A stretch of 64,000 bases of DNA from the NCBI RefSeq assembly GCF_014083985.1, contig NZ_CP046907.1, forward strand, positions 1,000,501-1,064,500, in the 5' to 3' direction. The position numbers were made by a program, and so were the translations under genes. The DNA comes from Streptomyces sp. SCUT-3. Lineage in GTDB: Bacteria; Actinomycetota; Actinomycetes; Streptomycetales; Streptomycetaceae. Each line of letters opens with the position of its first letter. The first letter of the stretch is position 1. The notes beneath the pieces were generated by a model. That model did no database searches. It was not told the origin of the DNA and saw only the letters and a program-made list of their open reading frames with translations. Positions 30,764-58,446 of this stretch are shown one piece after another.

Positions 30764-31030
30764 GGGGTTGTGGCCTTGCCCGATGCCTTGCCGCACCCCG
30801 GGGCCGCCTACACGTTCGCCAAGCGCGCCAACCACCTGCGCGTGCAGGCCGCCTCCCTCACCCGGGGAGCACGCGGGGCGCGCGTCAACACGATCAGCCT
30901 CGGCGTCGTCTCCACCCCGATGGGCCGCGCCGATCCGGCCGGCGAGTCCGGCGTCCCCATGCGCGCCCTGATCGAGAGCTCGGGCACCGGCCGCAACGGC
31001 GCCCCGAACGACATCGCCGAGGCCACCGCG
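30764..31030 (+). pseudogene. C-terminal fragment of a short-chain dehydrogenase
   Basis: The frame reads HPGAAYTFAKRANHLRVQAA, RVNTISLGVVSTPMGRADPA, GTGRNGAPNDIAEATA. This is the YxxxK active site and C-terminal half of a classical SDR. The Rossmann half is missing, and the sequence stops abruptly where the YD-repeat toxin frame begins. It is a gene remnant, probably left by recombination. Confidence 0.75.
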
Positions 31031-34000: not shown

Positions 34001-35453
34001 CCCGCTCCCCCGGCCCCTTCAGCACCGCACTTACACCTACCGGCCCGACGGCCACCTGACCGCCGTCGGCGACCAGCACACCGGGCAGCGCACCTTCGAC
34101 CTCGACCCGGCCGGTCGCGTCACCGCCGTCCACGCACACGACTGGACCGAGACCTACGCCTACGACCGGAGCGGCAACCAGACCCACGCGTCCTGGCCCG
34201 ACCGGCATCCCGCCTCGGACGCCCGCGGCGACCGCGCGTACACCGGAACGCGCATCACCCGCGCCGGAAACATCCGCTACGAATACGACGCACAGGGCCG
34301 CGTCACCCTGCGCCAGAGGATCCGCCTCTCCCGCAAACCCGACACCTGGCGCTACACCTGGGACGCCGAGGACCGCCTCACCCGCGTCACCACCCCCGAC
34401 GGCACCGTCTGGCGCTACCTCTACGACCCCCTCGGCCGCCGCATCGCCAAGCAACGCCTCGCCCCCGACCGGAACACCGTCGTGGAGGAGACACGCTTCG
34501 CGTGGGACGGCAGCACCCTCGTCGAGCAGACCACCCACGTCCACGGCTCACCGCAGGTCCTGACCCTCACCTGGGAGCACGACGGATTCACGCCCCTGGC
34601 GCAGACCGAGAGCAAAACGCCGGCCGACGCCCACCAGGACGTCGTCGACCAGCGCTTCTTCGCCATCGTCACCGACCAGATCGGCACCCCCAGCGAACTC
34701 GTCGACGAAGCGGGCAACATCGCCTGGCGCACCCGCGCCACCCTGTGGGGGACCACCGGTTGGAACCAGGACGCCGACGCCTACACCCCACTGCGCTTCC
34801 CCGGCCAGTACTTCGACCCCGAAACCCGACTCCACCACAACTACTTCCGGCATTACGACCCCGAAACCGGCCGCTACCTCACCCTCGACCCCCTCGGTCT
34901 CGCCCCCGCCCCCAATCCGGCAACCTACGTCGACAACCCGCTCTCCCTGACCGACCCCCTCGGTCTCACGCCCTGCGACGAGAACGACGTCACCTGGGGC
35001 GGCCGAGTCCGGTACGGGGCGCCGGGCCCTGGTGGCAGGGCAACTTCCATGCACGCCACCATCGAGCCCGGCATGACGGGGGGAAGCACAAATCCGTCAG
35101 TGAACGTGCCGGGATACCAAAAGTACAAGAATCTCAACAAAACCCATCTTCTCGGTGCACAGATCGGAGGGTCGAACAAGGACCCAAGGAATTTTGTGAC
35201 CATGCACCGGTTCGCGAACTCCCCGGTCATGCGCGCAATCGAGGACCAGATCAGGAAGGCGGTGGACGCCGGCGAGACGATCGAGTACAGCGTCATACCG
35301 ATCTACGCGTCGAACAGGAGCAATGACGTGATCCCGCTCGGCCTCACCATCGAGGCCCACGGCAACAAGGGATTCCAATTCGTCCCGTACAAATCCGACG
35401 GCGGAGGCACCAACAGTGTCACCGTTCTGAACGTCCCCAAGAGAGTTCCATGA
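31030..35453 (+). pseudogene. YD-repeat/Rhs polymorphic toxin, N-terminally cut and frameshifted
   Basis: Frame 1 (31030-34059) encodes about 100 helical residues, 23 consecutive Gly, a DUF6531-type domain (CGDPVDVATGRVFLDQADIA, LPLVFKRRFESSYRAGHRVG) and many YD repeats (YEYTYDHHSRCV, YAYDPRGRVTSITDALG). The same protein then continues in another frame (about 34020-35453): RTYTYRPDGHLTAVGDQ, the RHS core FPGQYFDPETRLHHNYFRHY with two DPLGL cleavage-type motifs, and an endonuclease tip (NKTHLLGAQIGGSNKDPRNF). One base appears to be missing in the C-rich tract at 34005-34019. The N-terminus lacks the expected secretion domain and abuts an SDR remnant. The tip resembles DNA/RNA non-specific nucleases (Endonuclea_NS_2). 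As read, no full toxin is made; a sequencing error could explain the shift but not the truncated N-terminus. Confidence 0.85.
31306..31374 (+). repeat. Poly-glycine tract (23 codons)
   Basis: An uninterrupted GGN run inside the YD-repeat protein gene, mostly GGC/GGA/GGT codons in varied order. It separates the N-terminal helical segment from the next helical domain. Confidence 0.9.
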
Positions 35454-35538: not shown

Positions 35539-36078
35539 ATGAACGCTTCGGTGGCCCGACTGACCGAGATCCTTCCACCCCCCGCGACGCCGCAGCCCAA
35601 GGACTGGGAAGCCGTCGAAAGGGAACTCGGCACACCGCTGCCCTCCGACTACAAGCAACTTGTCGACACCTACGGCGGTGGAGTGTTCGACGAGACCATC
35701 TGGCTGCTCGAACCGGGATGCCCCGACGAGAACTACGACCTGCTGGCAGCCTCCAAAGAACGCGAGGAAGTCCTTGGAGAACTCTGGGGAACTGGAGAAC
35801 CAAAGCCGGTCGAACTCCAGGAGGAAGGAGCCCGAGCACTTCCCTGGGGATACGGAGAGGGTGGCGGAGAATTTCTCTACTGGCTTGTCCGCCCCGGACA
35901 GGATCCTGACTCCTGGACCGTAATGATCAATGAAGGGCGCGGCCCGGAATGGGAACGCCACCCCATGTCGTGCACTCAGTTCCTGGTGTCCGTCCTGACC
36001 GGGGAGACAGACTCCGGAATCTTTTGCGAACTTCCCGTCGAAACCCATGGTTTCGACCGGAACGCCGACATCCTGTAG
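35539..36078 (+). CDS. SMI1/KNR4 (SUKH) family immunity protein
   Basis: 179 residues. The SUKH pattern is clear: WEAVERELGTPLPSDYKQLV, DTYGGGVFDETIWLLEPG, LPWGYGEGGGEFLYWLVRPG and TVMINEGRGPEWERHPMS. SUKH proteins neutralise nuclease tips of polymorphic toxins, so this is the expected antidote for the endonuclease domain that ends 85 bases upstream. ATG 35539 follows AAAGGA. The gene shares the lower GC of the toxin tip, fitting joint transfer. The frame is intact although the toxin is broken. Confidence 0.88.
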   Translation: MNASVARLTEILPPPATPQPKDWEAVERELGTPLPSDYKQLVDTYGGGVFDETIWLLEPGCPDENYDLLAASKEREEVLGELWGTGEPKPVELQEEGARALPWGYGEGGGEFLYWLVRPGQDPDSWTVMINEGRGPEWERHPMSCTQFLVSVLTGETDSGIFCELPVETHGFDRNADIL

Positions 36079-36400
36079 CTCCCGGCAACCTCGCGTCTTC
36101 AAACTCCCCCTGCCTCCGGCGCCGTCAACGGCTCTCGCCTCCGGGTCGACGGCGGCCGGCCGCAGGGCCCCTCCGGTCACGACCACTGACAGTTCCTGGC
36201 CCCGAGTCCGTGAAACCCGGCGGACGGCAAGCCGACCGGCGAAGTCCTCCTGCCGACGACGGGCCTCGGGAACGGCGTCGCCGGGCCGGCAACGCAAGAC
36301 CGAACGGCACCACGGCCTCGTCCGTCCTCACCGGACCCGGCTCAACTCCTGCGGACCTCGCACGCCATGCAGTCGGTGGGCACGCCCCCTGTCACCGACA
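36079..36400. other. Intergenic region, no gene assigned
   Basis: About 320 bases between two probable immunity genes. Possible coding remnants occur on both strands without start or stop signals that make sense. I see no clear repeat or hairpin. Confidence 0.35.
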
Positions 36401-36904
36401 ATGGTCACCGTGGACATCGAACTCGACCCGCCGAACGGCATCACTGGGTTCCCGCTGGGCATGCCGGCCGAAGCAGTCAAGGCATCAGCCGGACGACTGG
36501 GCGAACTCCGAGTCCACGACGAGGGTTCGGCCGACCAGTTCCGTTACATGAAAGTGACAGCCCTCCACAGCCAGTTCGAAATCGTCTTCCATCTGGAAGA
36601 CGGCAAGACCCTCACCTCCGCCGAGGTGTGGATTCCCCGTCCTGGTCCTGAGGAGATCACCGTCCGCTTCCGCGGCATCGATGTCTTCCGCACACCCGCC
36701 CGGCAACTACTCGAACAACTGCGGGCAATGGGACTGACCGTCCTGGACGAGACCTACTACGCCTACGTGCCCAGGCTTTCCCTCGGCTTCACTCGCGTCG
36801 CAGGCCACGAGGTTCCACTGGACACCGACGGCGAACCCCTGTACTTCCAAGCCGTCCTGACCGGCCCGACCGGCTACTACGACTACAAGCTCACAGAGGA
36901 CTGA
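36401..36904 (+). CDS. Hypothetical protein, possibly a second immunity protein
   Basis: 167 residues, not recognised. It looks like a compact alpha/beta protein: GITGFPLGMPAEAVKASAGR, ALHSQFEIVFHLEDGKTLTS, VWIPRPGPEEITVRFRGIDV and LGFTRVAGHEVPLDTDGEPL. It resembles small cytosolic proteins often found behind polymorphic toxins, and its place after the SMI1 gene suggests an orphan immunity gene. No good ribosome binding site is visible before ATG 36401 or the in-frame GTG 36410, so the start is uncertain. Confidence 0.6.
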   Translation: MVTVDIELDPPNGITGFPLGMPAEAVKASAGRLGELRVHDEGSADQFRYMKVTALHSQFEIVFHLEDGKTLTSAEVWIPRPGPEEITVRFRGIDVFRTPARQLLEQLRAMGLTVLDETYYAYVPRLSLGFTRVAGHEVPLDTDGEPLYFQAVLTGPTGYYDYKLTED

Positions 36905-37040
36905 GGTGACCGTTGAAGTCGCCCACACCCCGGCCAGCGGTTCCACTGATTCCAATGGTGGTTGCCGAGTCCGGTGATCGGACATGACAGGACGAGCCAG
37001 ACCGCCGAGAGGCTGCGCCGGGGCGGCCGGGTACTGAGCC

Positions 37041-37652
37041 CTACGAGTGAAGACTCCCTTCGGAGCGCGAAGCTTCGGGTTCTCCCGGACGCGGGGGTGC
37101 AGTGTCCACCTCGGCCCAGACGGTCTTGTCCCAGGCGGGGCCGTGGTGCCAGCTCCAGCGGTCGGCGAGGGCCGCGACCAGGAGCAGGCCGCGGCCGGAG
37201 GTGGTCTCGGGGTCGGGTGGCTGCGGGGCGATCAGAGGGAGGCGGTCGGGGCGGGAGTCGGTCACCTCGACGCGGACCGTGCGGGGCGTGCGGACCAGAC
37301 GCAGCCGGAAGTCCCGGTCGTGCATCCGGCCGTGGGTGACGGCGTTGGCGGCAAGTTCGGCGGTGATCGCGGCGACGGAGACGGAGGCCGGGGCGGTGTA
37401 CGGCACGCCCCACCGTTCGAGCTGCTGCACGGCAAGGTAGCGGGCCAGGCGGGCCCCGCGGCGCGTCGAGCTCAGCCGGACTGCCGACTCCAGGACCGGC
37501 CCGGCCGCGTCGGGAGGGGCGGGTACAACGGGATGTGCAGGCACGGCGAAAGGCGCGTCCGAGGCAGCATCCGCCTGCTGGGCGGGGCCGTCGGGGGCCA
37601 CAGGCACGGCGAGTGCGGATGTTTCCTCGGGGGCGGAGAGTTCCTGGTTCAC
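37041..37652 (-). CDS. HATPase_c-type ATP-binding protein (second module)
   Basis: 203 residues. The N-terminal 60 residues are Pro/Ala-rich. The GHKL domain follows: N-box AAITAELAANAVTHGRMHDR, G1 box VEVTDSRPDRLP and G2 box SGRGLLLVAALADRW, ending DKTVWAEVDT. It is divergent from the XRE/DUF397 genes at 37809-38863, the same layout as the module at 10.2-11.9 kb. The biochemical partner is unknown. Confidence 0.85.
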   Translation of the reverse strand: MNQELSAPEETSALAVPVAPDGPAQQADAASDAPFAVPAHPVVPAPPDAAGPVLESAVRLSSTRRGARLARYLAVQQLERWGVPYTAPASVSVAAITAELAANAVTHGRMHDRDFRLRLVRTPRTVRVEVTDSRPDRLPLIAPQPPDPETTSGRGLLLVAALADRWSWHHGPAWDKTVWAEVDTAPPRPGEPEASRSEGSLHS

Positions 37653-37808
37653 ACGGTGACCGTCTCGTCACGCACCGCTTCCGATCCAGGTCGCGCGGTC
37701 GTACGCGGGCGCGGTGTACGGGTGCGGTACGAGTGGCGGGCCGTGCTGGTACGGGCGGGTGCCTCGTTGGTCCCGGCGCAGAGACCGAACGGGGAAGGAG
37801 ACGGGCCC

Positions 37809-38645
37809 ATGGGGAACAGCCGCCCGAGGAAACGGGGCGCGGACGGGGAGTGGCCGGGCATCTGGTCCGGCTACGGCAAGCTGCTCAAACTCTCCCGGGA
37901 GCGTGCCGGGCTGACGCAGCAGGAGCTGGCGGAGGCGCTGGGCTACTCCTGCGAGCAGGTGGCCTCCGTGGAGCAGGGCCGCCGCCCGGCGAAGTCGGCG
38001 CTCACCGAGGCCGCCGAACGCGTCCTGGACGCCGGCGGGGCGCTGCGGGTCCTCCAGGACGAGGTGGACCTGGCCAAACTGCCCTCGTTCTTCCAGGACT
38101 TCGCCCTGATCGAGACCGAGGCCGTCAGCCGGTTCTCCTACGACCCGCTGCTCGTCCCCGGGCTGCTGCAGACCGAGGAGTACGCGCGGGCCCTGTTCGC
38201 GGGGCACTGCCCGCCCCTCGACGAGGAAGTCCTGGACCAGCACGTCGAGGCGAGGCTCCACCGGCAGAAGCTGCTGACGAGGACCCCGATCGCCGAACTG
38301 TGCTTCATCGTCGGCGAGTCGGCCCTGCTCAACCCGGTGGGCGGCGACGAGATCATGCGGGGCCAGCTCCGCCGGCTCCTCGACCGCGCCGCACAGCGCA
38401 ACGTCGAGATCCAGGTCATGCCGGCCAACCGCGGCTTCCACCCCGGCCTGAACGGCCCGTTCGTCCTGTTGGAGACGTGGGAGCACCAGCACGTCGGGTA
38501 CGTCGAGTCGCAGGAAGTCGGCGTTGTGGTCACCGATGCAGCACAGGTCAGTGCCTTCGGGCTCAGGTATGGGAAGCTGCGCTCGCAGGCTTTGAACGTC
38601 GAGGAGTCTGCGCGTCTCATCGAGCGTCTGGCGGGAGAAGCATGA
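37809..38645 (+). CDS. XRE-family regulator with DUF5753 (second module)
   Basis: 278 residues. The helix-turn-helix is at about 25-70 (LLKLSRERAGLTQQELAEAL, GYSCEQVASVEQGRRP), followed by DUF5753 (VPGLLQTEEYARALFAGHCP, EARLHRQKLLTRTPIAELCF, RNVEIQVMPANRGFHPGLNG). ATG 37809 is preceded by GGAAGGAGACGG. The stop overlaps the DUF397 start (ATGA). It is a paralogue of the protein at 10453-11304. Confidence 0.9.
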   Translation: MGNSRPRKRGADGEWPGIWSGYGKLLKLSRERAGLTQQELAEALGYSCEQVASVEQGRRPAKSALTEAAERVLDAGGALRVLQDEVDLAKLPSFFQDFALIETEAVSRFSYDPLLVPGLLQTEEYARALFAGHCPPLDEEVLDQHVEARLHRQKLLTRTPIAELCFIVGESALLNPVGGDEIMRGQLRRLLDRAAQRNVEIQVMPANRGFHPGLNGPFVLLETWEHQHVGYVESQEVGVVVTDAAQVSAFGLRYGKLRSQALNVEESARLIERLAGEA

Positions 38646-38863
38646 GCACTGAGCAGGCTCTTGGGGAGCCCGGTGACCTGATCTGGTTCAAGAGCAGCCA
38701 CAGCGGGTCGGGGGGCGGCGACTGCGTCGAGGTGGCTGTGGCGCCCGGCGCCGTCCACGTGCGCGACTCGAAGGACCGGCAGGGCCCGGCCCTGCGGTTC
38801 GGCGCCGACGAGTGGGCGGCGTTCGTCGCGTTCGCGAGGACGCGGCTCGACACGGAGGCGTGA
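38642..38863 (+). CDS. DUF397 protein (second module)
   Basis: 73 residues: IWFKSSHSGSGGGDCVEVAV, VHVRDSKDRQGPALRF and DEWAAFVAFAR. It has the DUF397 fingerprint and is coupled to the XRE gene by a 4-base overlap. A perfect 12-bp hairpin follows. Confidence 0.92.
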   Translation: MSTEQALGEPGDLIWFKSSHSGSGGGDCVEVAVAPGAVHVRDSKDRQGPALRFGADEWAAFVAFARTRLDTEA

Positions 38864-38886
38864 CGGGCGACGGCCGCGGGAAACCT

Positions 38887-38927
38887 GTTGTGCCGTGCCG
38901 CTTCCGACGGCAGCAGCACGGCACAAC
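38887..38927 (+). terminator. Hairpin terminator after XRE-DUF397
   Basis: GTTGTGCCGTGC and GCACGGCACAAC form a perfect 12-bp stem with a 17-nt loop, 23 bases after the DUF397 stop. Confidence 0.8.
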
Positions 38928-38989
38928 GTCCGCTCCGGGTCGATACAACCCAAGCCCCAGACAATCGAGTTGAACACTACGCTGGGGCG

Positions 38990-39388
38990 GTGACGAACAA
39001 GAGAACAGGTGGACGGTGGCTCGTCGCCGCCCTGGCCGCTTCCGCGGTACTCATTTCAGGGTGCACGGCCCCGGTCGACCCTGACGAGCTGCCCGGCGTG
39101 TACCGCAACGACGCGACCGGCAGCGAGATCCTGCTCGATTCCGACGGTACGTTCTCCGCCACCGACATATCGACGGACGAGTCCCCCGACCCCGTCGACT
39201 TCAGCGGCCGGTGGGAGTTCGTCGACAGCGAGACGTCCAGCGACTTCGTCCACCTGTCGGTCGATGACGGTGGACTCGGCAGTACCGTCGGCGTCCAGCT
39301 CTACCCGAACGGCCGGACGACGGTGGAGTTCCATTTCGATCCGGACGGGCCGCCGTCACTGGTTCTCACCAGGGTGGCCGCGCCGTAG
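38990..39388 (+). CDS. Small lipoprotein
   Basis: 132 residues with a signal peptide ending in the lipobox LISGC (WLVAALAASAVLISGC). The mature domain (DELPGVYRNDATGSEILLDS, GTFSATDIS, FSGRWEFVDSE, VGVQLYPNGRTTVEFHF) is all beta and looks like a small lipocalin/META-type fold found in Streptomyces lipoproteins. Function unknown. GTG 38990 has only GGGGC as a weak binding site. It converges with the M23 peptidase gene. Confidence 0.72.
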   Translation: MTNKRTGGRWLVAALAASAVLISGCTAPVDPDELPGVYRNDATGSEILLDSDGTFSATDISTDESPDPVDFSGRWEFVDSETSSDFVHLSVDDGGLGSTVGVQLYPNGRTTVEFHFDPDGPPSLVLTRVAAP

Positions 39389-39419
39389 ACCCTGCGTTCC
39401 GGGGCCGTCCGCCCGGCCG

Positions 39420-39992
39420 TCAGCATCCCTTCCAGGCCGTTGCGTGGTCGTGCGGGTACGTGCGGCCGCAGAAGGACGGCGGGTGGGAGACCCAGGTGCT
39501 CCCGGACCAGTGCTGGGTGGAGATGTGCAGGTGGCAGCCGGACGACTGGCCCTTGTTGCCGGTGTATCCGACCAGCGTCGTCGTGCCGACCGTCTGCCCG
39601 ACGTTCACGTTGATCGAGTCCATGTGCATGTACTTGAGGCGCCACTGCACACCGTTGACGTACTTGGTCATGGTGAGGCGGCCGATCGTGCGGTCGACGG
39701 TGGCGACCGTCATGCCGTCCCAGACGGGGTAGAGCCGCTTGTAGCACGGCGACCCCTTCAGGCCGAAGTCCAACCCGTAGTAGTCGCTGTAGTGCTCACC
39801 GTTGTGGTAGTCGACGTGCAGGCCCTCTCCGTACCACGAGCCGATGAGGGTCCACGATTCCGAGTAGTGCCACGGCGAGACACCGTTCGGGGACGGGGTG
39901 GAGCTGGAGTGCGCGGCGGCCGGAGAGCCCATGACGATGCACAGGACGAGGCCGGCGAGTGCACCTACGAGACGTAAGGCGGATCTTTTCAC
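39420..39992 (-). CDS. Secreted M23 family metallopeptidase
   Basis: 190 residues. Signal peptide (LRLVGALAGLVLCIVMGSPA), then a LytM/M23 domain with the zinc-ligand pattern GLHVDYHNGEHYSDYYGLDF and SGCHLHIS (HxH). Beta strands include KYMHMDSINVNVGQTVGTTT. Such enzymes cut peptide crosslinks in peptidoglycan or act as extracellular lysins. GTG 39992 follows GGAGCGAA. No extra cell-wall-binding domain is present. Confidence 0.82.
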   Translation of the reverse strand: MKRSALRLVGALAGLVLCIVMGSPAAAHSSSTPSPNGVSPWHYSESWTLIGSWYGEGLHVDYHNGEHYSDYYGLDFGLKGSPCYKRLYPVWDGMTVATVDRTIGRLTMTKYVNGVQWRLKYMHMDSINVNVGQTVGTTTLVGYTGNKGQSSGCHLHISTQHWSGSTWVSHPPSFCGRTYPHDHATAWKGC

Positions 39993-40189
39993 CGATTCGC
40001 TCCGTTTGTTTGCGTGAGCGACCTCCGGTCGGCCGCTTACGGGCGGCCGAAAGTAGCAGCCGGGCCGATGGCGCTCAATGATGTCGGCAGGGACCTGCCA
40101 CAGCCGCACGGCGCCCTTGAGGTGGGACGCGCCGACGTGCGGGCCGGAACGCCGTCGAGCGCCCTCGCAGCACGCCCGGTCCGGCCCGG

Positions 40190-40594
40190 GAGCGGTGGAG
40201 GGGGCCAGTACAGGCCGCGAAGCAGTGCGATCTCGGTCATGTGGTGAATGACCCCGAGGTCGTCCCCCGTCGGCACGCTGACGAACGGATGGCTGGGACC
40301 GGGTCCGTAGAGGTACTGCGAGAAGGCGATCGTATCGAGTTGCTCGCCGGTGGCAACCTCTGCATACTAGCTCGCCGGGATCTCCGGGGCGCCTTGGTAG
40401 AGCCCTCGGCCACCCGGCTCGAACATCCTGGGTGTCGACACCTCGCCCCGGCACCGGATCGGCCAGCAGCCGGGTACTGACTCCCGCAGGTACTCCTCGC
40501 CGCTGAGCCCCACCGGCCGTATCCGGGCCATCCCCCTGGCGCAGTCGAGCTGGTCGAGCAGCCGGCCCGAACGGCCGGTCCACGCCTGCGGCAC
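40190..40594 (-). pseudogene. Broken DinB-like protein gene
   Basis: From GTG 40594 the frame reads TGRSGRLLDQLDCARGMARI, RPVGLSGEEYLRESVPGCWP, then hits TAG at 40367-40369. The same frame continues with TGEQLDTIAFSQYLYGPGPS and VIHHMTEIALLRGLYW, which resemble the start and end of DinB-like (DUF664-type) four-helix proteins. The middle section is missing. I read it as a decayed gene. Confidence 0.5.
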
Positions 40595-40702
40595 AGTTGA
40601 GCAGCGGCCGTTTCCGCTGGAATTCCCCAGCCGCCGGCGGAAAGTCCTATCGTCGGCGGTGCATGCCGTGAACGGACGGGACGTCAGGAGAGGGATTTCC
40701 GC

Positions 40703-43279
40703 ATGGAGGCCAAAGAGACCCTGTTCGCCGACCTCGTGCAGGGACGGGCCCAGCAGTTTCAAGTACCCCTCTACCAGAGGACGTACTCCTGGACGGATAA
40801 GCAACTGGCCCAGTTGTGGGGCGACATCCTCGAGCAGGCCGAGCTCCTGGAGGCCGGGGACAGGGACAGCACACACTTCCTCGGCTCGGTCGTGCTGGCC
40901 CCCTCCCCGCAGAACGAGGTGACGTTCCCGCGGTGGCTCGTCGTCGACGGTCAGCAACGGCTGACCACGCTCTCCCTCGCCCTGGCCGCGATCCGCGACC
41001 ACATCACCGACGGTCAGCCGGACGAGGCCGAGCGGATCAACGAGGAATATCTGATCAACAAGCGCAAGAACGGCAACGACCACTTCCGGCTGCTCCCGAC
41101 CCAGGCCGACCGGGCCCAGTTCGCCGCGCACGTCCGCGGCACTCACGCGGAGCACGCCGCCGGGGGCGCCGTCTCCGCCGCCTACCGCTTCTTCCGGCGC
41201 AAGCTCGTCGAGGCCGCCGACCCGGCCGCTCCGCAGGACGTGTTCCGCATCGAGCAGGCGATCACCTCACGGCTCACGCTGGTGGCGGTCACCGCCAAGC
41301 GCGGCGACAACGTGCACCGCATCTTCGAGTCGCTGAACAACACCGGGCTCAAGCTCAGCCAGGCGGACCTACTGCGCAACTACCTGTTCATGCGGCTGGA
41401 GACCCGCAGTGAGCACGTCTACGAGACCTACTGGCTGCCCCTGCAGGACAGTCTGAGCAATGACGAGCTCGAACAGCTCATGTGGTTGCAGCTGGTGCTC
41501 GACGGGGACGACCGGGTCCGCCGCCAGGACCTCTACACCGCCCAGCAGCAGCGCTTCGAGCGCCGGGGGACGGGCGAGGCGGAGATCGAGGCGTACGTCA
41601 GGGAACTGCACCGCCGGTGCGCCCACTTCCGCAGGCTGATCCACCCCGGGTAGGAACCCGATCCGTCGGTCCGCGCCCACCTGCAGCGCCTGAACGGCTG
41701 GCAGGCCACGGTGACCCACCCCGCGCTGATGCTGCTGCTCGACCGGCGGGACCGCGGGGAGATCGACTCCTCCGACACGGCCCGCGCGATGTCGTACATC
41801 GAGAGCTTCCTGGTGCGCCGGACGATCTGCCGGATCCCGACGAACAACCTGAACCGGATCTTCCAGTCCGTGCCGGCGCAGCTCCCGGTCGGGGTGCCCG
41901 TCGCCGACGGCCTGCACCAACTCCTCTCCGCCGAGAACCGGTTCTGGCCCGACGACGACGAACTGCGCGAGAAGATCCGCACCGCCCCCTTTTACCACTA
42001 CGGGCGCTGGGACCAGCGCAAACTGGTACTGCAACGGCTGGAGGAGAGCTACAGCCACCCTGAGCCGGTGGACTTCGCCGCCGCACGGCTGACCATCGAG
42101 CACGTGATGCCGCAGGCGGCCGGTGAGGAATGGCTGCGGATACTGGCCGAGGACGCAGCTGAAGGAGAGAGTGCGGAGGAACTGCACGCCCGGCTGCAGC
42201 ACACCCTCGGGAACCTGACGCTCACCGCGGTGAACTCCGAACTGTCCAACCACCCGTTCGAGCGCAAGCAGGACCTGCTGCGCGGCAGCCGCCTGGAGAT
42301 GAACCGCCGCATCGCCGCCGCCGAGCGCTGGGGCGCCAAGGAGATACTGGCCCGCGCGGACGAGCTCGCCGACCGGGCCGTCGAGCTGTGGCCGGCCCCG
42401 CTGCGCGGCGTCGGCCGCGCGGAGCGCAGCCGGGACTGGCACCTCGCCCACCAGGTCCTCGCCGCACTCCCCCACGGCACCTGGACGTCCTACGGCGACC
42501 TCGCCGCGTTCATCGGCTCCGGCGCCCAGGCCGTGGGCAACCACCTGGCCGGCACTCCCGGCGTGGTCAACGCGTACCGGGTACTCAACGCCGGCGGCCA
42601 AGTGTCCGACAAGTTCCGCTGGGCCTCCCCGGAGGAGGAGGGAGACGTCAAGGACCGTCTGGCCGCCGACGGGATCCGCTTCACCGACGGCGGGACAGCC
42701 GACCCCGCGCAGCGCCTCACCAGCGACGACCTCGTCCTCCTCCTCTCCGGCGCCGACGGGGCGGGTGAACAGCAGGGCGAGGACACCGGCCAGAACCTCG
42801 CAGAGGGCAAGGAGGAGGAGACGCGCGCCGAACGGTTCTTCCGGCAGCTCGCGGCGAACGACACCCCCGAGACCGTGGCCGCCGTGCGCTCACTCTTCGC
42901 CCACTGGGAGGAACTCGGCGGCTGGATCGGGCACGGAGCAGGCCGTGTCATCACCAGCGCGTTCCTCATGCTGGGGAACCAGGGCGGCCCGGGGAACGGC
43001 ATCTGGCCGCTGACCCTCTACCCGGGCAGCGGACGCGGCGGCACGGCAGAAGTGGTGTTCCAGTACCTCGCCGCACGCGAGCCGTTCACCGACCGCGCGC
43101 TGCGCGCCGAACTCCTCGACCGCCTCAACCGGCTGGACGGCGTCGACATCCCGGAGGGCAAGCTGGAACTGCGCCCCAACATCCGGTTGTCGCTGCTGGA
43201 GCAGGGCCACAACCGCGAACTCCTGGCCGAGACGCTGGCCTGGTTCCGGGACCGATGGGAGAACCGGAACGCCTCCTGA
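40703..43279 (+). pseudogene. GmrSD-type DUF262/DUF1524 restriction gene fused to an alkyltransferase-like domain, with amber stop
   Basis: The frame from ATG 40703 encodes DUF262 (VPLYQRTYSWTDKQLAQLWG, LVVDGQQRLTTLSLALAAIR). A TAG at 41651-41653 (codon 317) interrupts it. The same frame then continues without further damage: THPALMLLLDRRDRGEIDSS, the DUF1524 nuclease-like motifs (RLTIEHVMPQ, LGNLTLTAVNSELSNHPFER), an alkyltransferase-like DNA-binding domain (LPHGTWTSYGDLAAFIGSGA) without the PCHR active Cys, and a C-terminal region I cannot name. Full length would be 858 residues. GmrSD proteins cut modified phage DNA using nucleotide hydrolysis by the DUF262 part. A single C-to-T change (CAG to TAG) would explain the stop. 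ATG 40703 is preceded by GGAGAGGG. Confidence 0.85.
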
Positions 43280-43282
43280 CAC

Positions 43283-43570
43283 GCCGGTCCCGCCCCCCGC
43301 GTTCACGCGGGGCGCGAGGCGCTGGCTCAGGAACTGTGGAGCGGCCCCCCGGCCAGGCGGTGGATCCGGCACGGTCCGGTATTCACCACCAAATCCACAA
43401 GCCTCAGCCATGCGGTCGTAGACGTCGAGGATGAGGTCGGGACCTGTCCACCACTCGGGGGGGGCAGGTCCCAGCTTCCTCTGCTGCACTACTCGCGCCA
43501 ACTGCACAACTGGAGTGGACGGTACCCATTGGCCGTCCTTCTGCAGCAGCAGTGGAGCGAGCTGTGGCAC
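43283..43570 (-). pseudogene. Possible gene remnant downstream of the Hsp70 gene
   Basis: The minus frame from GTG 43570 reads PQLAPLLLQKDGQWVPSTPV, KLGPAPPEWWTGPDLILDVY and DRMAEACGFGGEYRTVPDPP with sensible codon bias. It then runs without a stop into the antisense of the GmrSD gene. It lacks a ribosome binding site. It may be the 5' part of a truncated gene once at the end of the chaperone operon. Confidence 0.3.
43295..43312. terminator. Hairpin after the GmrSD gene
   Basis: CCCCGCG, loop TTCA and CGCGGGG form a 7-bp stem 15 bases after the GmrSD stop, possibly serving both converging transcription units. Confidence 0.5.
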
Positions 43571-43604
43571 ATCCGGAAATCGCGTGACAGAGTCCGGAAG
43601 CCGG

Positions 43605-45365
43605 TCAGAGTCCCCTCGTCACCACTCTCTGCGGCTCGCCGTTGACCGTTACCGCGGAGTCGGCCTTCATCACGCGCACGGACATGTCGATCGGTGCGGG
43701 GCGGGCGTTGGCCGTTTCGGCCGCCGAGAGGTGCCGGACGTTGGAGGAGCCGTCGGCGAACGGGCGGACGGTGTGCGCCAGAAGGCGGGTCAGCTCATCG
43801 TCGAGGCCGCGCTGCAGTGGGGTGCCGTCAGGGCCGAAGGAGTCGATCTCGCGCTCGGCAAGTACCACGCCGGTCTCCGCGTGGGTGGCGGTGAAGCGCA
43901 GGATGCCGCTCTCGTTGTAGCGGAACTTGATCTCGATCTTGTTCCGGCGGATGTCCTGCTCGCGGGTCGGGAGATTCACCTCGATGTTGGCCAGGGGGAA
44001 GGCACGGTCGCTGTCGGCCGGGTAGCCGACCTCGCCCTCGATCACTGGCACGCGCACGAGGGAAGCGCCCGGCGTGTCCGGGTAGAAGTTGGCCGAACCC
44101 TCCGCGGGGAGCGTGGCGTTGCGTCGGATGATGGCACGGAAGCCCTTCTGCCCGCCCGCGCTCACAGCCGTGCCCAGGTCATAGCTGGTCACCAGGGAGA
44201 AGTCGCTGTCGTCGCCGAGTTCGCCGTCGAGGGACGCCGCATAGATGGCCGCGCCTCGGGCGACGGCGGTCATGGGCCGGCACAGGCCGCTGTCGACAAT
44301 GCGGTCGTGGCCGATGAGCTCGCCCAGGGCATGACGTACCTGGGGGATCTGCGAGGTGCCGCCGATCATCAGGACGGAGTCGATGGCGTCCGCGGTGATG
44401 GCCAGATCTTCCAGGGCCTGCTGGACCGGCTCCAGGGCGCGGGTGATGAGCGGGGTAATCGCCTCGGTGTACTCGGCCGCGGTGATCCTGACCTCACGCC
44501 TCGAAATCGAGGGGGCAAGGCCGACCGGGAGGTCGAAGAAGAGCGCGCCGTCCTTCGGCACGGAGGACAGGGCGATCTTCGTCAGCTCGACCGCCCGGCG
44601 CCACCGGCGTCGTTCAGCCTTGGTGAGCCGGTCCGGGGCCAAGCCGATCTTCTGCTGGATCAGCTGGGCCAGCGCATTGTCGAATTCCAGGCCCCCGAGA
44701 GTGGTGATACCGCGCGAGGTCTGCTCCTCGAAGAGGCCGTCGTCGTATTCGAGGACGGTGACGTCGATGGTGCCGCCGCCCCAGTCGAAGACGAGGAAAC
44801 GACCGGGGATCGGGACGTCGTGGGCGTACGAGATCGCAGCCGCAGTGGGCTCGTTGAGCAGGGCCCGGACCCTCACTCCGCCGAGCATTGCCGCGGCACG
44901 GGTGCGGTAGCGGGCACCGCCCGTGGCCTTGGCGGGGACGGTGACGACCGCGTCGGAGAGGTCGAGCAGCTGAGCGGAGACGCCTTCCTTCATCCTGCTG
45001 AAGAGGGAGGCGGCCGCGACCGTGCTGTGGAATTTCTCCGAACCGACCCAGACGTGATGTTCCTCGAGCTGTGCTGCGATCTCGAGGCCGTCGATGTCAC
45101 CGTCCTTCTCGGCACCGGAGCGGGTGCCGAGCATGCGCTTCACGGCGTCGAGCGGCTCACTGGTGCCGGTCTTCGCCTCCCAGCCGAAGCAGAGGGTGCG
45201 CTGGAGGTCGCGGACGGACAACACGGAGGGGAAGAGTTGATCGAACTCCGACATCTGCCACTGGGCGGGCACGTTGTCACCGTCGACTGGCAGCACTTCG
45301 GTGGTGTGCCCGTTCCAGTGGGCCACCACGGAGTTGCTGGTGCCGAAGTCGATACCGAAAGTCAC
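43605..45365 (-). CDS. Hsp70/DnaK-family chaperone in defence operon
   Basis: 586 residues. The nucleotide-binding domain is complete: phosphate-1 loop FGIDFGTSNSVVAHW, connect-1 LLNEPTAAAISYAHD, phosphate-2 loop LVFDWGGGTIDVTVLEYDDG and adenosine motif SVLMIGGTSQIPQVRHAL. A beta-sandwich substrate-binding domain follows (NIEVNLPTREQDIRR, IEIKFRYNESGILRFTATHA), but the helical lid is short and there is no acidic tail. It differs clearly from housekeeping DnaK (about 620 residues with a full lid). It is the last gene of a six-gene operon, and its start overlaps the GrpE-like gene by 4 bases. It probably remodels or holds a partner in that operon. Confidence 0.88.
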   Translation of the reverse strand: MTFGIDFGTSNSVVAHWNGHTTEVLPVDGDNVPAQWQMSEFDQLFPSVLSVRDLQRTLCFGWEAKTGTSEPLDAVKRMLGTRSGAEKDGDIDGLEIAAQLEEHHVWVGSEKFHSTVAAASLFSRMKEGVSAQLLDLSDAVVTVPAKATGGARYRTRAAAMLGGVRVRALLNEPTAAAISYAHDVPIPGRFLVFDWGGGTIDVTVLEYDDGLFEEQTSRGITTLGGLEFDNALAQLIQQKIGLAPDRLTKAERRRWRRAVELTKIALSSVPKDGALFFDLPVGLAPSISRREVRITAAEYTEAITPLITRALEPVQQALEDLAITADAIDSVLMIGGTSQIPQVRHALGELIGHDRIVDSGLCRPMTAVARGAAIYAASLDGELGDDSDFSLVTSYDLGTAVSAGGQKGFRAIIRRNATLPAEGSANFYPDTPGASLVRVPVIEGEVGYPADSDRAFPLANIEVNLPTREQDIRRNKIEIKFRYNESGILRFTATHAETGVVLAEREIDSFGPDGTPLQRGLDDELTRLLAHTVRPFADGSSNVRHLSAAETANARPAPIDMSVRVMKADSAVTVNGEPQRVVTRGL

Positions 45366-46261
45366 CGCGTTTTCCTTCCCGCCATCCGACGGTCCCCGTT
45401 GCCTTCGAAGCGGGGATGCGCCCCGTCGTCTCGCCGCCCGTCGTCTCTGTGCTGCTGCTTCTCGGGTTCCTGACCCCGGTGGTGCTTCTTCCTCTTCTGC
45501 TGCGCGGGAGCCTCCTTCTCCGGCTGCTTCCTCTCAGCTTCGGCATGTGTTGCTCTACGCCTCTGCTGGCGTGTCATTTCCTTGGGTGAAACCTTGGCAA
45601 CGGCCCGCAGCCATCCGCGTTCCACAAGCTTCCCGGACTCTGTGTCGACGTAGGCCGGCGCGACGATTTCATAGGTGACCGGACCTCTCTTCGTCACGCC
45701 GGGCTGGTCCTCCACGACGTTGAACAGCGACTGATCGCCGGCGTCGCCGACGATCTGCAGGCCGGCCTTCGCCGCCTCGTCGTCAAGGCGGGTCAGCACC
45801 ACCTTCAAGGTCTTCGCGTCCAGCGCCTGCCGGTGCAGAACGGCCAACTGGGCCAGGTGCATCTGGCGTGTGCGGATACTCTCCAGCACACCCTTGCGCA
45901 CTGCTTCGGTGAACTGGGGAAGCACTCGGCGCATCAGCTCGGTCCGGAAGGTGGAGACCAGATCGGTCTCGGTCTCCTTGTCGGCCAGAGCTGCGCCCAG
46001 TTTCTCCGTCGCCTCCTCCAACTCCTTCTCCACCACGGGCAGGAGCGTCTCGTTAACCGACTTCAGGATCGCGGCGGCGTCCAGAGTCCCCGGGGTGAAC
46101 TCGGGCACGTGGCTTTCGGTGAACCGCCAGGGAGCAGCCTTGGCCGCCCTGAGCTCACCACGATTCCGCACGCTCCCGTTGTTCGGCCCACGTCCCCGGT
46201 TCCGCCGGGATCCGTCACGGGGTCCAGAACTATTGTCACCTTTACCGGCTCCGTTGCTCAC
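45362..46261 (-). CDS. GrpE-like protein in defence operon
   Basis: 299 residues. The N-terminus is basic and Gly/Asn-rich. A long helical section (LLPVVEKELEEATEKLGAAL, FTEAVRKGVLESIRTRQMHL) is followed by AAKAGLQIVGDAGDQSLFNV, VTYEIVAPAYVD and GWLRAVAKVS. This order of coiled coil, then a small beta domain ending in an x-x-R/L-x-A-x-V-x-V strand, matches GrpE, the Hsp70 nucleotide exchange factor. A highly basic Gln/Arg/Lys tail extends beyond it. Similarity is by pattern only, but the Hsp70 gene directly downstream (4-base overlap) strongly supports it. Confidence 0.62.
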   Translation of the reverse strand: MSNGAGKGDNSSGPRDGSRRNRGRGPNNGSVRNRGELRAAKAAPWRFTESHVPEFTPGTLDAAAILKSVNETLLPVVEKELEEATEKLGAALADKETETDLVSTFRTELMRRVLPQFTEAVRKGVLESIRTRQMHLAQLAVLHRQALDAKTLKVVLTRLDDEAAKAGLQIVGDAGDQSLFNVVEDQPGVTKRGPVTYEIVAPAYVDTESGKLVERGWLRAVAKVSPKEMTRQQRRRATHAEAERKQPEKEAPAQQKRKKHHRGQEPEKQQHRDDGRRDDGAHPRFEGNGDRRMAGRKTR

Positions 46262-48000
46262 GATGTGCTGCTCTCTGGGTATTCAAGGGCTGCGGTGTCT
46301 TCGGCAGCCGGGGAAAGGCGCTCTGACGCCCTGGTGATTATTTCTCGGGCCGCCTCGATGCGTGACCACTCGCGGTCACTGTCCGTGGGCGGCGCGGTGA
46401 GCCTCGGCAGGGGCTCGGGCGGGAGTTCCAGCCGGTGGCTCGTGCCGGTGGGGGCCTTCCAGCGGTGCGGGGCGAGCGGGACGGCGAACCGGAATACTTC
46501 CTGCTGTTCCCGATCGGCCTTCTCGATCATGTCCTTGGCGCGGTTTATCCGGACGCGACCGCTGTCGTCGAGCTCCTTCCTCAGCGCCCGCCAGGCCTTC
46601 TTCCAGTCGTCCGCCCCGTCGGGCGCGCCGAGCACCATGTACGGGTTGAGCGGCTGGTCGCGTTCCCCGAGAGGTCGGTCCTCCAGGAAGCTCCGATTAT
46701 TCCGCAGCGTGGCCACGGCGCCTCCACCGAGCTGGTCCGGCACCGGGGGGCGGCCTTCGGCGTCCTGCTCCAAGAGTCTGAGGGCCTCCGTGATCTCCTG
46801 GCCGGCGCGCAGGTATGCCTGGATGTTTTGGGCCTCCCAGCGCACCGGCTGCGGGTGGTGCCGGAGCCTCGCGGCCATGTTGAGCGCAGCTCTTCTCCGC
46901 TGTTCCGCCGCCTCGTCGTCCCCGTGGAGGAGGGCGCGGTGCATCTGCCGCACGGCCCTGATCAGGGTCCGCACGCCGATCCAGCCGTTGAACTTCTTGT
47001 TGGTCGCGCTGCGCACGCGAAGGTCGATCCGCTCCAGGAGAACCCACAGTCGCTCGTCGGCGACGAGGGCGTCCGGGGCCTCTCCGGTCCGCCGCACCTC
47101 GCGCAGGGCGTCCAGGAGCTTCTGCGTCGGTGGCAGGAGGTCGGTCCACTCCTCGGTGATGGCCTCGGCGTCGTTGGCCTGCAGCCTCACCAGCAGGCGC
47201 CAGTCCTGCGGCCAGCTGCGACCGGGTTCCGTTCCCGGGCCTGCCTCCCGACGCTCCCGTTCCAGTGGCCAGGCCAGCAGGTCCATCTCCTCGTCGGTGA
47301 GGGACGCCGGGTCCAGGCGAGCACGGAAGTAGGCGGCACGGGATGTGCCGTCGCGCTCGGGGACCGCGCCGATCCACTCCTCGTCGATGTAGTCGTCGAG
47401 GAGTGGCCGGGGGAGCTTCGCCAGGAGCGCCCTCTGCCGAGGGGCCGGCACGTTGACCTCCATCAGGCGACGGTCGTCCTGGTAGATCTGCCACATGCTG
47501 CCCGGCTCCCCCAGGAGCGGCAGCGGCTTGTCCTCCAGCAGGGCGCGGGCGCGGTCGCCGAGTAGGCGGTTGAAGACGTCCAACCCGTGGTTCTGTGCCG
47601 TGACGAGCAAGGAGACGCCCTCGACCGGGTCGTCCTGCCGGGATGCCGTATCGGCCGCGGCCCGTGCCAGTTTCTGCGCGGAGAGCGTCCCGGTCTCCGC
47701 CTTCAGCGCGTCAGGCAGCATGGTTTCGGCGAAGGAGCGGGCACGCTCCCAGGCCTGCCGGTCGGTGAATCCCTCGGGGACCGGCTGGGGCACGGCCGGT
47801 TCCGGTTCCGGCTGCTTCTGCGGCGGAACGACCGGAGGAGGGCTGTCGGCGGCTTCCGCGCCCTGCGGAGCTTTCCCGACGGTCCGGTCCCGGGCGCGGG
47901 CCTGGTGGAGGGCGAGACGGCGGGCGATCTCGCGCTGCCGCAGCTCCTCCAGGCGGGCCTGCTCGTCCTGGCCCGCTCCCAGCGGGTTTCCTGCCGTCAT
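46258..48000 (-). CDS. Protein with degenerate J-like domain in defence operon
   Basis: 580 residues, mostly helical. The N-terminus is a charged coiled coil (ARLEELRQREIARRLALHQA) and a Pro-rich linker. The middle is not recognised (FNRLLGDRARALLEDKPLPL, LLPPTQKLLDALREVRRTGE). Near residues 452-500 there is a J-domain-like stretch: NPYMVLGAPDGADDWKKAWR, ALRKELDDSG, RVRINRAKDMIEKADREQ. This keeps helices II and III, but the HPD tripeptide is replaced by DDS. With Hsp70 and GrpE-like genes directly downstream, it is plausibly the Hsp70 co-chaperone or a client adaptor. ATG 48000 overlaps the helicase stop by one base. Confidence 0.6.
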   Translation of the reverse strand: MTAGNPLGAGQDEQARLEELRQREIARRLALHQARARDRTVGKAPQGAEAADSPPPVVPPQKQPEPEPAVPQPVPEGFTDRQAWERARSFAETMLPDALKAETGTLSAQKLARAAADTASRQDDPVEGVSLLVTAQNHGLDVFNRLLGDRARALLEDKPLPLLGEPGSMWQIYQDDRRLMEVNVPAPRQRALLAKLPRPLLDDYIDEEWIGAVPERDGTSRAAYFRARLDPASLTDEEMDLLAWPLERERREAGPGTEPGRSWPQDWRLLVRLQANDAEAITEEWTDLLPPTQKLLDALREVRRTGEAPDALVADERLWVLLERIDLRVRSATNKKFNGWIGVRTLIRAVRQMHRALLHGDDEAAEQRRRAALNMAARLRHHPQPVRWEAQNIQAYLRAGQEITEALRLLEQDAEGRPPVPDQLGGGAVATLRNNRSFLEDRPLGERDQPLNPYMVLGAPDGADDWKKAWRALRKELDDSGRVRINRAKDMIEKADREQQEVFRFAVPLAPHRWKAPTGTSHRLELPPEPLPRLTAPPTDSDREWSRIEAAREIITRASERLSPAAEDTAALEYPESSTS

Positions 48001-51000
48001 CAGAGCTCCTCCGCGAAGGTGTGCACCTGCTCGATCACCGCGGCAGGAGTCCGGTCCAGGCTGTAGGAGTCGGCGAAGGCGATCCTCGGGGCGAGGCCAC
48101 CAGCGCGGACCTCGTGGCGCAGAGCCCGGAGCCGTTCGTTTCCGCACTCCTCGGTGGCGGACTCCAGCGGATGCTTGACGGCGACTGCGACGGGCTCGCC
48201 GGTGAAGTCCGAGGTGAAGAGCGCCACCGGTCCGGCGGCGGTCTCCTTGAGGCTGACGGTGGGCTCCTCGTCCGCCCAGCCCTTCAGCAGGACGGCGTGC
48301 TCGTCCGGGTCGATCTGCAGTTTCCGGCCGCGCAGGGCGTCGGTCAGGTCGCGGGCGAGCCGCCAGTCGTACAGCGGGTGGAGGCGCATGTTGGAGTAGT
48401 CGCGCAGGCAGGCGTAGCAGGAGCTGCGGCAGTTCTGCGCATGGTGGTCGACCTCCAGGTCCTGTACGTACCGGTCGACCGCCCGGAGGAACTCGTCGAT
48501 GTGTTCCTCCGAACCGAGGTAGGTGCTGAAGCCCGCGCCGTTGTCGAGGCTGTCCGCCAGGTAGGCCATGACGGGAGCGGCCACCGGGGCGTCCGAGCCG
48601 TGGATGCCGCTGAGGAGTTCCTCCGGCTGCACGTCCAGGTGCGGGGCGGCGGCACGGCGCAGCAGGGCCGCCAGCGAGTACCAGGCGGCGCGCCGGCCGT
48701 GGTAGGCCTCGGGGAAGCCGTCGATCTGCTGGGACTTCGAGATGTCGAAGCGGAGGCCTCGGCTGGTGTCGAGGGCGCCCTTGGCCCCGACGAAGAGCAT
48801 GTCGGTGTGCTGGGTGGCGCCGAGGGCGATCTCCAGGTCGGCTTCCGCCTTGGGGTGGTCCAGAGCGAGGTATCCGCGCCACGGGCCGGTGTTCTTGACG
48901 AACCGGAAGAGCTTTCCGGCGTTGGTGTTGACGATGTAGCGGTCGCCGCTGCCGGTGTGGACGACCATCCAGTCGTCGGCGGCGCGGTGAATGCGCGGGG
49001 CGGTCTTCTCCAGGTCGGTGGCGGTCCGTGCGCTGGTGGCGTTGGAGCCGAGCTCCCGGTAGCCGTCGTAGTCCCGTGCTTCGCGGGCGGCCCGGAAGCC
49101 TGCGGGTTCCCGGAAGGGGACGGCCCTGTAGTACTTGCTCTCCGCGCCGCAGGCGGGGCAGGTGCCGGCGCTCCCGGTCTCCGGGTCGACGACGGCCTGC
49201 GGGTCCACGTGGGAGCAGATCCGGCACATGGCGACCAGCTGTTCCGGTCCGAACGGGTCCTCGGCGGCCTGCACTCCGCGGCCGCTCGGGACGAGGGAGA
49301 CCACTCCCACGGAGCGGAGCAGACGGCCGTCCTGCGGGGTTTCGCTGCCCGGTGCGAACTTGCTGAGGGCGACGGCCAGGTCGCGGTTGACGGAGTCGGC
49401 CGGCGGCCAGGGGAAGGTCTTCTGCGGGATGCTCCGGTAGAGGAGGCGGGAGCGGGTCGGGAAGCCGAACATGGGCAGGAGGCCGGCCTCCGCCAGACGC
49501 TGGCTGAGGTCGGGGTGGCCGACCGTCCGGGCCGCCACCTCGTCGACCTGGTCGAGGAGTTCGTCGACGGCGGCCACCGGGTCGATGGCGGCGATGCTCT
49601 CCGGTGTTCCGGCCTGGAAGGCGGCGGCAGCGGCTCTGATGCGGTCCGGGTGCTCGGCGGTCCAGCGGCGGACGGCACCGCGATGCATCGGCCAGTCGGC
49701 GGCGAGGCCGAACTGTCCGTGGACGTTGGTCGTCATGTCCGGCCCCTTCCGGCGGTCCTCCGGCTGCAGGGGTTCGAAGGCCTGGCGCAGGACCTCTCCC
49801 AGCAGGACCCGCCGGAAGACGGAGACCATGCCGAGGACCAGGTAGGGCGGCGGAGTCGGATCGTTGGTGATGGCTTCCGGGCGGGCGAAGTAGTGCTCGT
49901 CGTGACTGCGGCCGCGGCAGACGGTGAGGGCTACGGCGACCGGGCTGTTGCGTCGGCCGGCGCGCCCCACCCGCTGCTGGTAGTTGAAGCGGGTGGGCGG
50001 CATGTTGGCCATGATCACGGTGTTGAGGGGGCCGATGTCGACACCGGCCTCCATGGTCGTGGTCACGGAGAGCAGTTCCAGGCCGTCCGCCTGCGGGACG
50101 TCGTCGTCGCCGAGGAAGACGTCCTGGAAGAGGCTCTGCCGGCGCTGGGCCTCCAGCCGGTCCGTCTGGCCGGTCAGCTCCGCGGTGCGCAGGGGGAAGT
50201 CACCGGTGCGGTGGGCGGCCTTCCACGCGTAGTAGTCGTCTTCGAGGACTCCGCTGTACTGCTGGGGCACAGCGGGCAGCGGGGTCAGGCACTTGGTGCA
50301 CAGCCCCGCACCCGGGTGAAGGTGCGGCCGGTGGCAGGAACGGCACGTCCAAGTCTTGTTCTCGCCGGGGCGGAGCGCCACCTTCTCCGGCTTGATGACG
50401 TAATCGACCACGGCGTCCTTCCAGACACCGAGCACCCGGTCCTCGACCGTCTGCACATCGGTGCCTTGGCGTTCGGCGATCTGCTTCCAGAAACGCTTCA
50501 GAGGCGCGGGCGGCCCCTGCAGGGAGGCACGTATCCGGGTGAAGCGCCGCATCAGGCCGAGGATCCGCAGGCTGGCCCGCGCCACGGCCTGGTCGCTCTC
50601 CGGGCCGGTCTCCAGAGGCGAGCGGTCGTCGCGCAGGCAGAGCCAGCCGAGCCCGAGCGATTCGAAGTCACGGCCGCCGCCGGAGAAGAGGCTGCCGATG
50701 GTCTCGAGGCGGAGGCGGGAGCGGATGCGGTTGAGGAGTTCCTCCTGTGCCTGGGTGTCCACCACCGCTTCCCCGTCCCGTTGCCAGTTGTAGAGCGCGG
50801 TCCAGGGCTGTCCGGCCGAGGTCTGCTGGAGCGAGGCCGCGGGGCCGGCGGGGTTGGTGCCGTACTTCAGCAGCATGCCTTCGAGGTCGGAGGCGAGGTC
50901 GTCCAGGGAGGGCAGTTCGGAGAACTTGCGTTCCAGGTCGGGGAGGAGTTCCGGTTCCGCGTCGAGGTCGTCGGCAAGGATCGCCTTCAGGCGCCCCCAG

Positions 51001-58168: not shown

Positions 58169-58382
58169 GGGTTCCCCCTGGGTGGTGGACGGTCGGCCGT
58201 CGCCCGGCCCCGAGGCGCCGCACGTCCCCCGGCGCCCCGCCGGAAGGGGCGGAGCAGGACGAGGGGCGGGGCGCTCCAGGACATGGCTGCGGCAAGGGAA
58301 GTGACGCTTTCCGCCGGGGAGTCCCACTCGCCGGCGGAAGCGACCACATGAAAGCATGACCGTGAAAGCGCTGTCCAACGAC

Positions 58383-58410
58383 TTGTCAGAGTTGACGCGT
58401 GCTGTAAGGT
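58383..58410 (+). promoter_or_regulatory. Promoter of the methylase/type I RM operon
   Basis: TTGTCA, a 16-base spacer and TAAGGT. The expected transcript start lies just before 58420, giving a leader of about 30 bases before ATG 58447. TTGTCA is followed by GAG and TTGAC, forming a direct repeat that overlaps the -35 box and might bind a regulator. Confidence 0.55.
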
Positions 58411-58446
58411 GTGAGCACGCCGACCATCGGAGCCAGGACCTCACCC

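What the first reader, a model, noticed from the sequence alone, without database searches (positions are those of the whole stretch)
40703..43279. In-frame amber codon splitting a GmrSD-type restriction gene
TAG at 41651-41653 follows a run of 316 sense codons and the same frame continues for 541 more with no other defect. Protein homology is continuous on both sides. A single CAG-to-TAG change is the simplest cause. The nuclease half may be switched off, or two separate DUF262 and DUF1524 proteins may be made.
Basis: seen in the sequence. Interest (0 to 1): 0.6.

Follow-up and report, generated by a model that had tools for sequence, protein, structure and literature searches.

The report
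Restriction gene interrupted by stop codon
A bacterial anti-phage restriction gene carries one stop codon in its middle where its intact relatives have none; most likely it is a recent knock-out mutation or a sequencing error, an ordinary kind of finding.

Summary
TAG 41651-41653 is codon 317 of the frame from ATG 40703, and the frame then stays open for 541 codons. Both halves align to one single-chain GmrSD-family protein (DUF262, helical linker, DUF1524, alkyltransferase-type DNA-binding domain), an architecture already reported from Streptomyces (PMC4619093). None of 47 other full-length matches in 394 family genomes has a stop inside. TAG should act as a stop: RF1 is present and no CUA anticodon was called among 66 tRNA genes, one anticodon being unclear. 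The second half is not clearly decayed. My best reading is a young nonsense allele of a defence-island gene. An assembly error is the main rival: 6 of 44 AMP-binding domains in this genome are frame-broken, against 1 of 146 in three control genomes, though no clean in-frame stop was seen there. An active two-chain enzyme is possible: the founding E. coli GmrSD was split by a stop during cloning and stayed active (PMC4437046).

The parts
40703..41650 (+). N-terminal half, 316 codons: DUF262 (GmrSD_N, residues 9-229) and the first part of the helical linker
   Evidence: translation; Pfam; model of an intact relative
41651..41653 (+). in-frame TAG, codon 317, in the turn between two helices of the linker
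   Evidence: position in the model between helices 292-313 and 321-333
41654..43279 (+). C-terminal half, 541 codons and TGA: rest of the linker, DUF1524 HNH nuclease (residues 98-240 of this half), DNA_binding_1 (267-323), C-terminal region without Pfam match
41711..41713 (+). first in-frame GTG after the stop (codon 337), possible but poorly supported restart
   Evidence: GTG in 7 of 46 close relatives; SD energy -5.7, reached by 44% of 123 internal starts
41729..41731 (+). first in-frame ATG after the stop (codon 343), possible restart; ATG in 46 of 46 close relatives
   Evidence: SD energy -7.4, reached by 22% of 123 internal starts; the native start ATG 40703 scores -9.9 (7%)

Best explanation
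The locus is a single-chain GmrSD-type restriction gene (DUF262 NTPase-like domain, helical linker, DUF1524 HNH nuclease, alkyltransferase-type DNA-binding domain) at the edge of a defence island in a Streptomycetaceae genome. One nonsense substitution in the linker has interrupted it recently. The ribosome should stop after 316 residues and release an N-terminal fragment without nuclease, so the restriction function is lost or strongly reduced. Shown: the stop, the intact frames, the intact relatives, a standard amber stop with RF1 present, no clear decay downstream. Inferred: that the base is real, that the N-terminal fragment is inactive, and that the second half is not made in useful amount.
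For: One stop and no other lesion in 859 codons. 47 of 47 other full-length family matches lack a stop; 69 of 69 distinct intact relatives have a sense codon there (stop-containing copies had been left out of that set beforehand). RF1 present over its curated cut-off; none of 67 ARAGORN calls has anticodon CUA, two calls having an unclear 4-base anticodon. The family breaks often: 8 of 64 loci are not full length. The second half, with the HNH motif, is beyond the stop, and HNH point mutants of Eco94GmrSD and BrxU lose activity (PMC4437046 abstract and passages, PMC8565348 passages). Pairwise dN/dS against four close relatives is 0.11-0.17 in the first half and 0.22-0.28 in the second, C/N ratio rank 9 of 47, so no strong relaxation.
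Against: No reads or second strain were available, so the base may be an assembly error; broken frames are frequent in this genome. In E. coli a stop-split GmrSD stayed active (PMC4437046), so loss of function does not follow automatically. A conserved in-frame ATG lies 75 bases after the stop. No strong decay is seen in the second half, which would also fit continued use.
Confidence: 0.55

Rival explanations
1. Assembly or sequencing error: the real gene is intact and makes one 858-residue protein.
For: Frame-broken domains are unusually many in this genome: AMP-binding 6 of 44 instances against 1 of 146 in three control genomes (Fisher p 7e-4), ABC_tran 3 frame-changed pairs among 123 listed matches (150 of 221 candidates were scored), adh_short one instance in three frames among 51 matches. 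The RHS gene in the window is frame-broken too. PMC4619093 section 12 warns that close GmrS/GmrD pairs may be sequencing errors. The second half is not clearly decayed.
Against: All those breaks are frame changes, not substitutions. Among 225 domain matches in this genome one lists a stop, a TGA in an already frame-shifted AMP-binding domain. The three 16S copies have the same score. G/C runs of 4 or more lie in 8 of 9 break intervals, but such runs occur about every 85 bases, so this does not show the cause; true pseudogenes are not excluded.
Confidence: 0.28
2. Active two-chain enzyme: translation stops at 317, restarts at GTG 41711 or ATG 41729, and the two fragments reassemble through the helical bundle, giving a weaker, less toxic restriction enzyme.
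For: Precedent: the two-chain EcoCT596 GmrS/GmrD arose when a stop codon gave a truncated GmrS and a re-initiated GmrD that kept activity, in a gene toxic at higher copy (PMC4437046, passages and section 3 part 1). The stop lies in a turn between helices in a confidently modelled bundle (mean pLDDT 95 for residues 311-320). The second half stays under constraint. ATG 41729 is conserved in 46 of 46 close relatives. Relative L092 has a frame change at about the same linker position.
Against: No strong ribosome-binding site: GTG 41711 at -5.7 (44% of 123 internal starts as good), ATG 41729 at -7.4 (22%), native start -9.9 (7%). GTG 41711 is GTC in 34 of 46 relatives. Met 343 is explained as a structural residue, since intact relatives have it without any split. 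In the close clade no second split copy was seen. Five of 138 otherwise invariant columns in residues 318-700 are changed in this copy against 0 of 144 before the stop (other relatives at most 3; Fisher p 0.06), which hints, weakly, at relaxation.
Confidence: 0.12
3. Programmed or suppressed read-through of TAG gives some full-length protein.
For: Open frame and constrained second half.
Against: The stop is not conserved: 69 of 69 distinct intact relatives have a sense codon. No CUA anticodon called among the tRNA genes, RF1 present, no Rfam match in 36000-48000.
Confidence: 0.03

Closest known systems
Single-chain GmrSD (DUF262-linker-DUF1524) with DNA_binding_1 (PF01035), reported mainly from Streptomyces (PMC4619093)
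   Same: Same three Pfam domains in the same order, helical linker, Streptomycetaceae relatives at 71-82% identity over the full length
   Different: A stop codon in the linker; the relatives are open
EcoCT596 GmrS/GmrD two-chain clone (PMC4437046)
   Same: A stop codon between the DUF262 and DUF1524 parts of a single-chain gene
   Different: There a cloning artefact with a small deletion, re-initiation and shown activity; here a chromosomal sequence without a deletion and with no shown re-initiation
BrxU (7p9k) and Eco94GmrSD
   Same: DUF262 plus DUF1524, DGQQR motif and HNH nuclease region
   Different: No alkyltransferase-type domain among the matches recalled for them; Foldseek match of our model to 7p9k is weak (E 0.2)
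DndI (9jfl) and SspE (6jiv, 7drr, 7drs), phosphorothioation-sensing DUF262 proteins
   Same: Best structural matches of the model of an intact relative (9jfl E 1.6e-10, 7drr E 3.6e-8); 9jfl is also the best sequence match among solved structures (E 1.1e-12, residues 16-117)
   Different: About 15% identity and TM-score below 0.5; different C-terminal parts; sensing of phosphorothioate DNA not testable here

Membership tests
GmrSD-type (DUF262/DUF1524) restriction genes | DUF262 (PF03235) domain with DGQQR motif | tested here: met
   GmrSD_N E 2.8e-36; DGQQR in the translation
GmrSD-type (DUF262/DUF1524) restriction genes | DUF1524 (PF07510) domain with HNH region | tested here: met
   GmrSD_C E 3.3e-27; IEHVMP here where BrxU has DHIYP; E466-H467 invariant in 31 aligned relatives
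GmrSD-type (DUF262/DUF1524) restriction genes | single chain carrying both domains (the predominant form, PMC4619093) | tested here: not met
   TAG at codon 317; intact in 56 of 64 loci and 29 of 29 relatives' loci
GmrSD-type (DUF262/DUF1524) restriction genes | cleavage of modified phage DNA | not testable with these tools
   no assay
Two-chain GmrS/GmrD | second half with its own start and ribosome-binding site | tested here: inconclusive
   in-frame GTG 41711 and ATG 41729 exist, SD scores average to slightly better than average
Recoded or suppressed amber codon | stop conserved in relatives | tested here: not met
   sense codon in 69 of 69 distinct intact relatives, 0 stops in 47 of 47 full-length matches
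Recoded or suppressed amber codon | tRNA with CUA anticodon | tested here: not met
   66 RF00005 matches; 67 ARAGORN calls, none CUA, two with unclear 4-base anticodons; a very divergent tRNA could be missed

The most novel reading that the evidence does not exclude
A naturally stop-split GmrSD: the amber codon in the linker turns a single-chain, potentially self-toxic restriction enzyme into an attenuated but working two-chain enzyme by restart at 41711 or 41729, the chromosomal counterpart of the EcoCT596 cloning artefact; the frame change of relative L092 at the same linker position would be a second case.
Probability: 0.1. Interest if true: 0.45.

Novelty: new member of a known kind. Interest (0 to 1): 0.15.

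Why it matters
If real, it is one more example of how readily anti-phage genes are switched off within defence islands. It would matter more if the two fragments still work together, because then splitting in the linker would be a natural way to tame a GmrSD enzyme, testable directly by co-expressing the two halves. The check also shows that this genome record needs care: broken reading frames are frequent in it.

Tried and rejected
CAG origin of the TAG: not favoured, Glu in 41 of 46 close relatives. Re-assigned amber codon: rejected, RF1 present and no CUA anticodon called. Structured RNA around the stop: no Rfam match at gathering score in 36000-48000. Second intact copy in the same genome: none with the second half as query; two other DUF262 genes are more distant. 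Shared genomic neighbourhood: the M23 and HSP70 neighbours were found beside the gene only in the window's own loci, but the flanks of many loci are short (about 1.5 kb for L003-L031). Other genomes of the same genus: none held. NCBIfam gave no useful match for either half. Literature: search for GmrSD with alkyltransferase-like gave no paper; five terms on nanopore indels in Streptomyces gave none. Indels at G/C runs as a signature of sequencing error: not shown, because such runs are too common. Frame-break counts were joined by eye from the match lists, and single partial matches were not counted as broken; the control genomes were searched with AMP-binding only.

Rows dropped: 16 identical proteins were dropped before codon counts (85 to 69); copies that were not full length or had a stop were left out of that set (8 of 64 loci, none of 29).

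Full report
Observation. The frame from ATG 40703 has 316 sense codons, TAG at 41651-41653, 541 more sense codons and TGA at 43277-43279. A DUF262 domain (GmrSD_N) lies before the stop; a DUF1524 domain (GmrSD_C) and a 6-O-methylguanine methyltransferase-type DNA-binding domain lie after it. One PADLOC profile continues across the stop at positions 298 and 302. G+C at codon position 3 stays at 0.93 and 0.92.

Relatives. The own genome (6,075,149 bases, one contig, 99% complete) holds one copy and no other genome of its genus was held. In a family sample of 394 genomes, 125 have some match. Besides the window copy there are 47 full-length matches (query 1 or 2 to 848 or beyond), all without a stop inside (the match list is cut at its weak end). 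The scan of genome contigs gave 64 loci, of which 56 hold a full-length open copy and 8 do not: L069, L070, L074, L076, L080, L092, L093, L095. L069 and L080 differ at the C-terminal end and may be truncated or of another architecture; L092 has a frame change at about the same linker position as our stop. From 85 full-length proteins, 69 distinct ones remained. At the aligned codon 46 close relatives have Glu 41, Val 2, Asn, Lys and Leu 1 each; 23 distant ones are mostly Arg; over all 69: Glu 41, Arg 19, Leu 2, Val 2, Asn, Lys, Gln, His and Ser 1 each. So a Glu codon is the likely ancestor and Gln is not.

Is TAG a stop here? RF1 (TIGR00019) is present over its cut-off. Infernal found 66 tRNA genes; ARAGORN on those stretches made 67 calls, none with anticodon CUA, two with an unclear 4-base anticodon, of which one corresponds to an Infernal match. 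No Rfam family matched 36000-48000. Ordinary termination is therefore expected.

Age and decay. Pairwise Nei-Gojobori dN/dS against the four relatives L003, L034, L045 and L042 is 0.11-0.17 for codons 1-316 and 0.22-0.28 for codons 318-858. The ratio of nonsynonymous difference between the halves ranks 9 of 47 (whole second half) or 4 of 47 (codons 318-700) among the close clade. Against this, 5 of 138 otherwise invariant columns in 318-700 are changed in the window copy, more than in any of the 46 others (at most 3), and 0 of 144 before the stop (Fisher p 0.06). The second half is thus still constrained or only just beginning to drift: the stop is young, absent, or tolerated. The nearest relative is L034 (support 0.82) and the terminal branch is 0.12 substitutions per site, so a young change cannot be dated closely.

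Quality of the genome record. Frame changes inside conserved domains are frequent: 6 of 44 AMP-binding instances (51 matches), 3 pairs among 123 ABC_tran matches (150 of 221 candidates scored), one adh_short instance spread over three frames (51 matches). In three one-contig control genomes of the family the count is 1 of 146 AMP-binding instances (149 matches), Fisher p 7e-4. The RHS gene of the window, 31030-34059 and 33771-35453, is broken in the same way. These are indels, either in the assembly or in the chromosome. Only one in-frame stop is listed in the 225 domain matches of this genome, a TGA in an AMP-binding domain that is already frame-shifted. A substitution that makes a clean stop is therefore of another class than the breaks seen, and I give the assembly-error reading 0.28, not more.

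Can the second half be made? After the stop the first in-frame starts are GTG 41711 and ATG 41729. The GTG is conserved as GTG in 7 of 46 close relatives and its Shine-Dalgarno score (-5.7) is matched by 44% of 123 internal starts. ATG 41729 is conserved in 46 of 46, as a residue of intact proteins, and its score (-7.4) is matched by 22%; the gene's own start scores -9.9 (7%). This leaves re-initiation possible but unsupported. In the AlphaFold model of the intact relative L034 (31 sequences, mean pLDDT 73.9, pTM 0.55) the position falls between helices 292-313 and 321-333 of a bundle modelled with high confidence (block 311-320 at 95). The closest solved structures are DndI (9jfl) and SspE; BrxU (7p9k) comes lower at E 0.2.

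Precedent. Machnicka and others (PMC4619093; abstract, passages and section 12 seen) describe single-chain GmrSD as the main form, list DNA_binding_1 in homologues mainly from Streptomyces, and warn that neighbouring GmrS and GmrD genes may be sequencing errors. He and others (PMC4437046; passages and part 1 of section 3 seen) report that the two-chain EcoCT596 enzyme arose from a stop codon with re-initiation and a small deletion during cloning of a toxic gene, and kept activity. HNH mutants lose activity in Eco94GmrSD and BrxU (PMC4437046, PMC8565348 passages). So the architecture is known, the type of break is known, and only the case is new.

Surroundings. The gene sits beside an HSP70-like gene and a Druantia type IV-like set (DruE4, DruL4, DruF4), a DndB-like gene and a type I restriction-modification set. 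It fits the picture of a defence island with turnover of its genes.

Verdict. Best reading: young nonsense allele, restriction lost or reduced (0.55). Rivals: assembly error (0.28), active two-chain enzyme (0.12), read-through (0.03). Interest is low, 0.15, because interrupted defence genes are common and the base itself is not yet verified.

Noticed in passing
window 31030-35453 (+): RHS-repeat gene with a C-terminal DNA/RNA non-specific endonuclease domain, broken by a frame change between about 33771 and 34059; the two frames carry the two parts of the protein.
   Followed up: partly
window 48000-56583 (-): Druantia type IV-like set: DruE4 (48000-53837), DruL4 (53462-54784), DruF4 (54451-56583), with a DndB-like gene at 56936-58468.
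   Followed up: partly
window 58411-63901 (+): Type I restriction-modification set: two N6-DNA-methylase genes and a specificity subunit.
   Followed up: no
own genome C1: 73880, 1161114, 2427544, 2770853, 2786941, 3072533, 3618321, 5463565, 5829205, 828209: Conserved domains spread over two or three frames (AMP-binding, ABC_tran, adh_short); suggests assembly indels or many pseudogenes.
   Followed up: partly
own genome C1:1072877-1073476 (-), L138: Another DUF262 protein with an open frame about 8.4 kb beyond the window end, with a DUF1524-like HNH region by eye.
   Followed up: no
L092:5986 region: Relative with a frame change at about the same linker position as the stop in the window.
   Followed up: partly
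L101:66-140 (own genome C1:779265): tRNA gene for which ARAGORN calls a 4-base anticodon (cttt).
   Followed up: no
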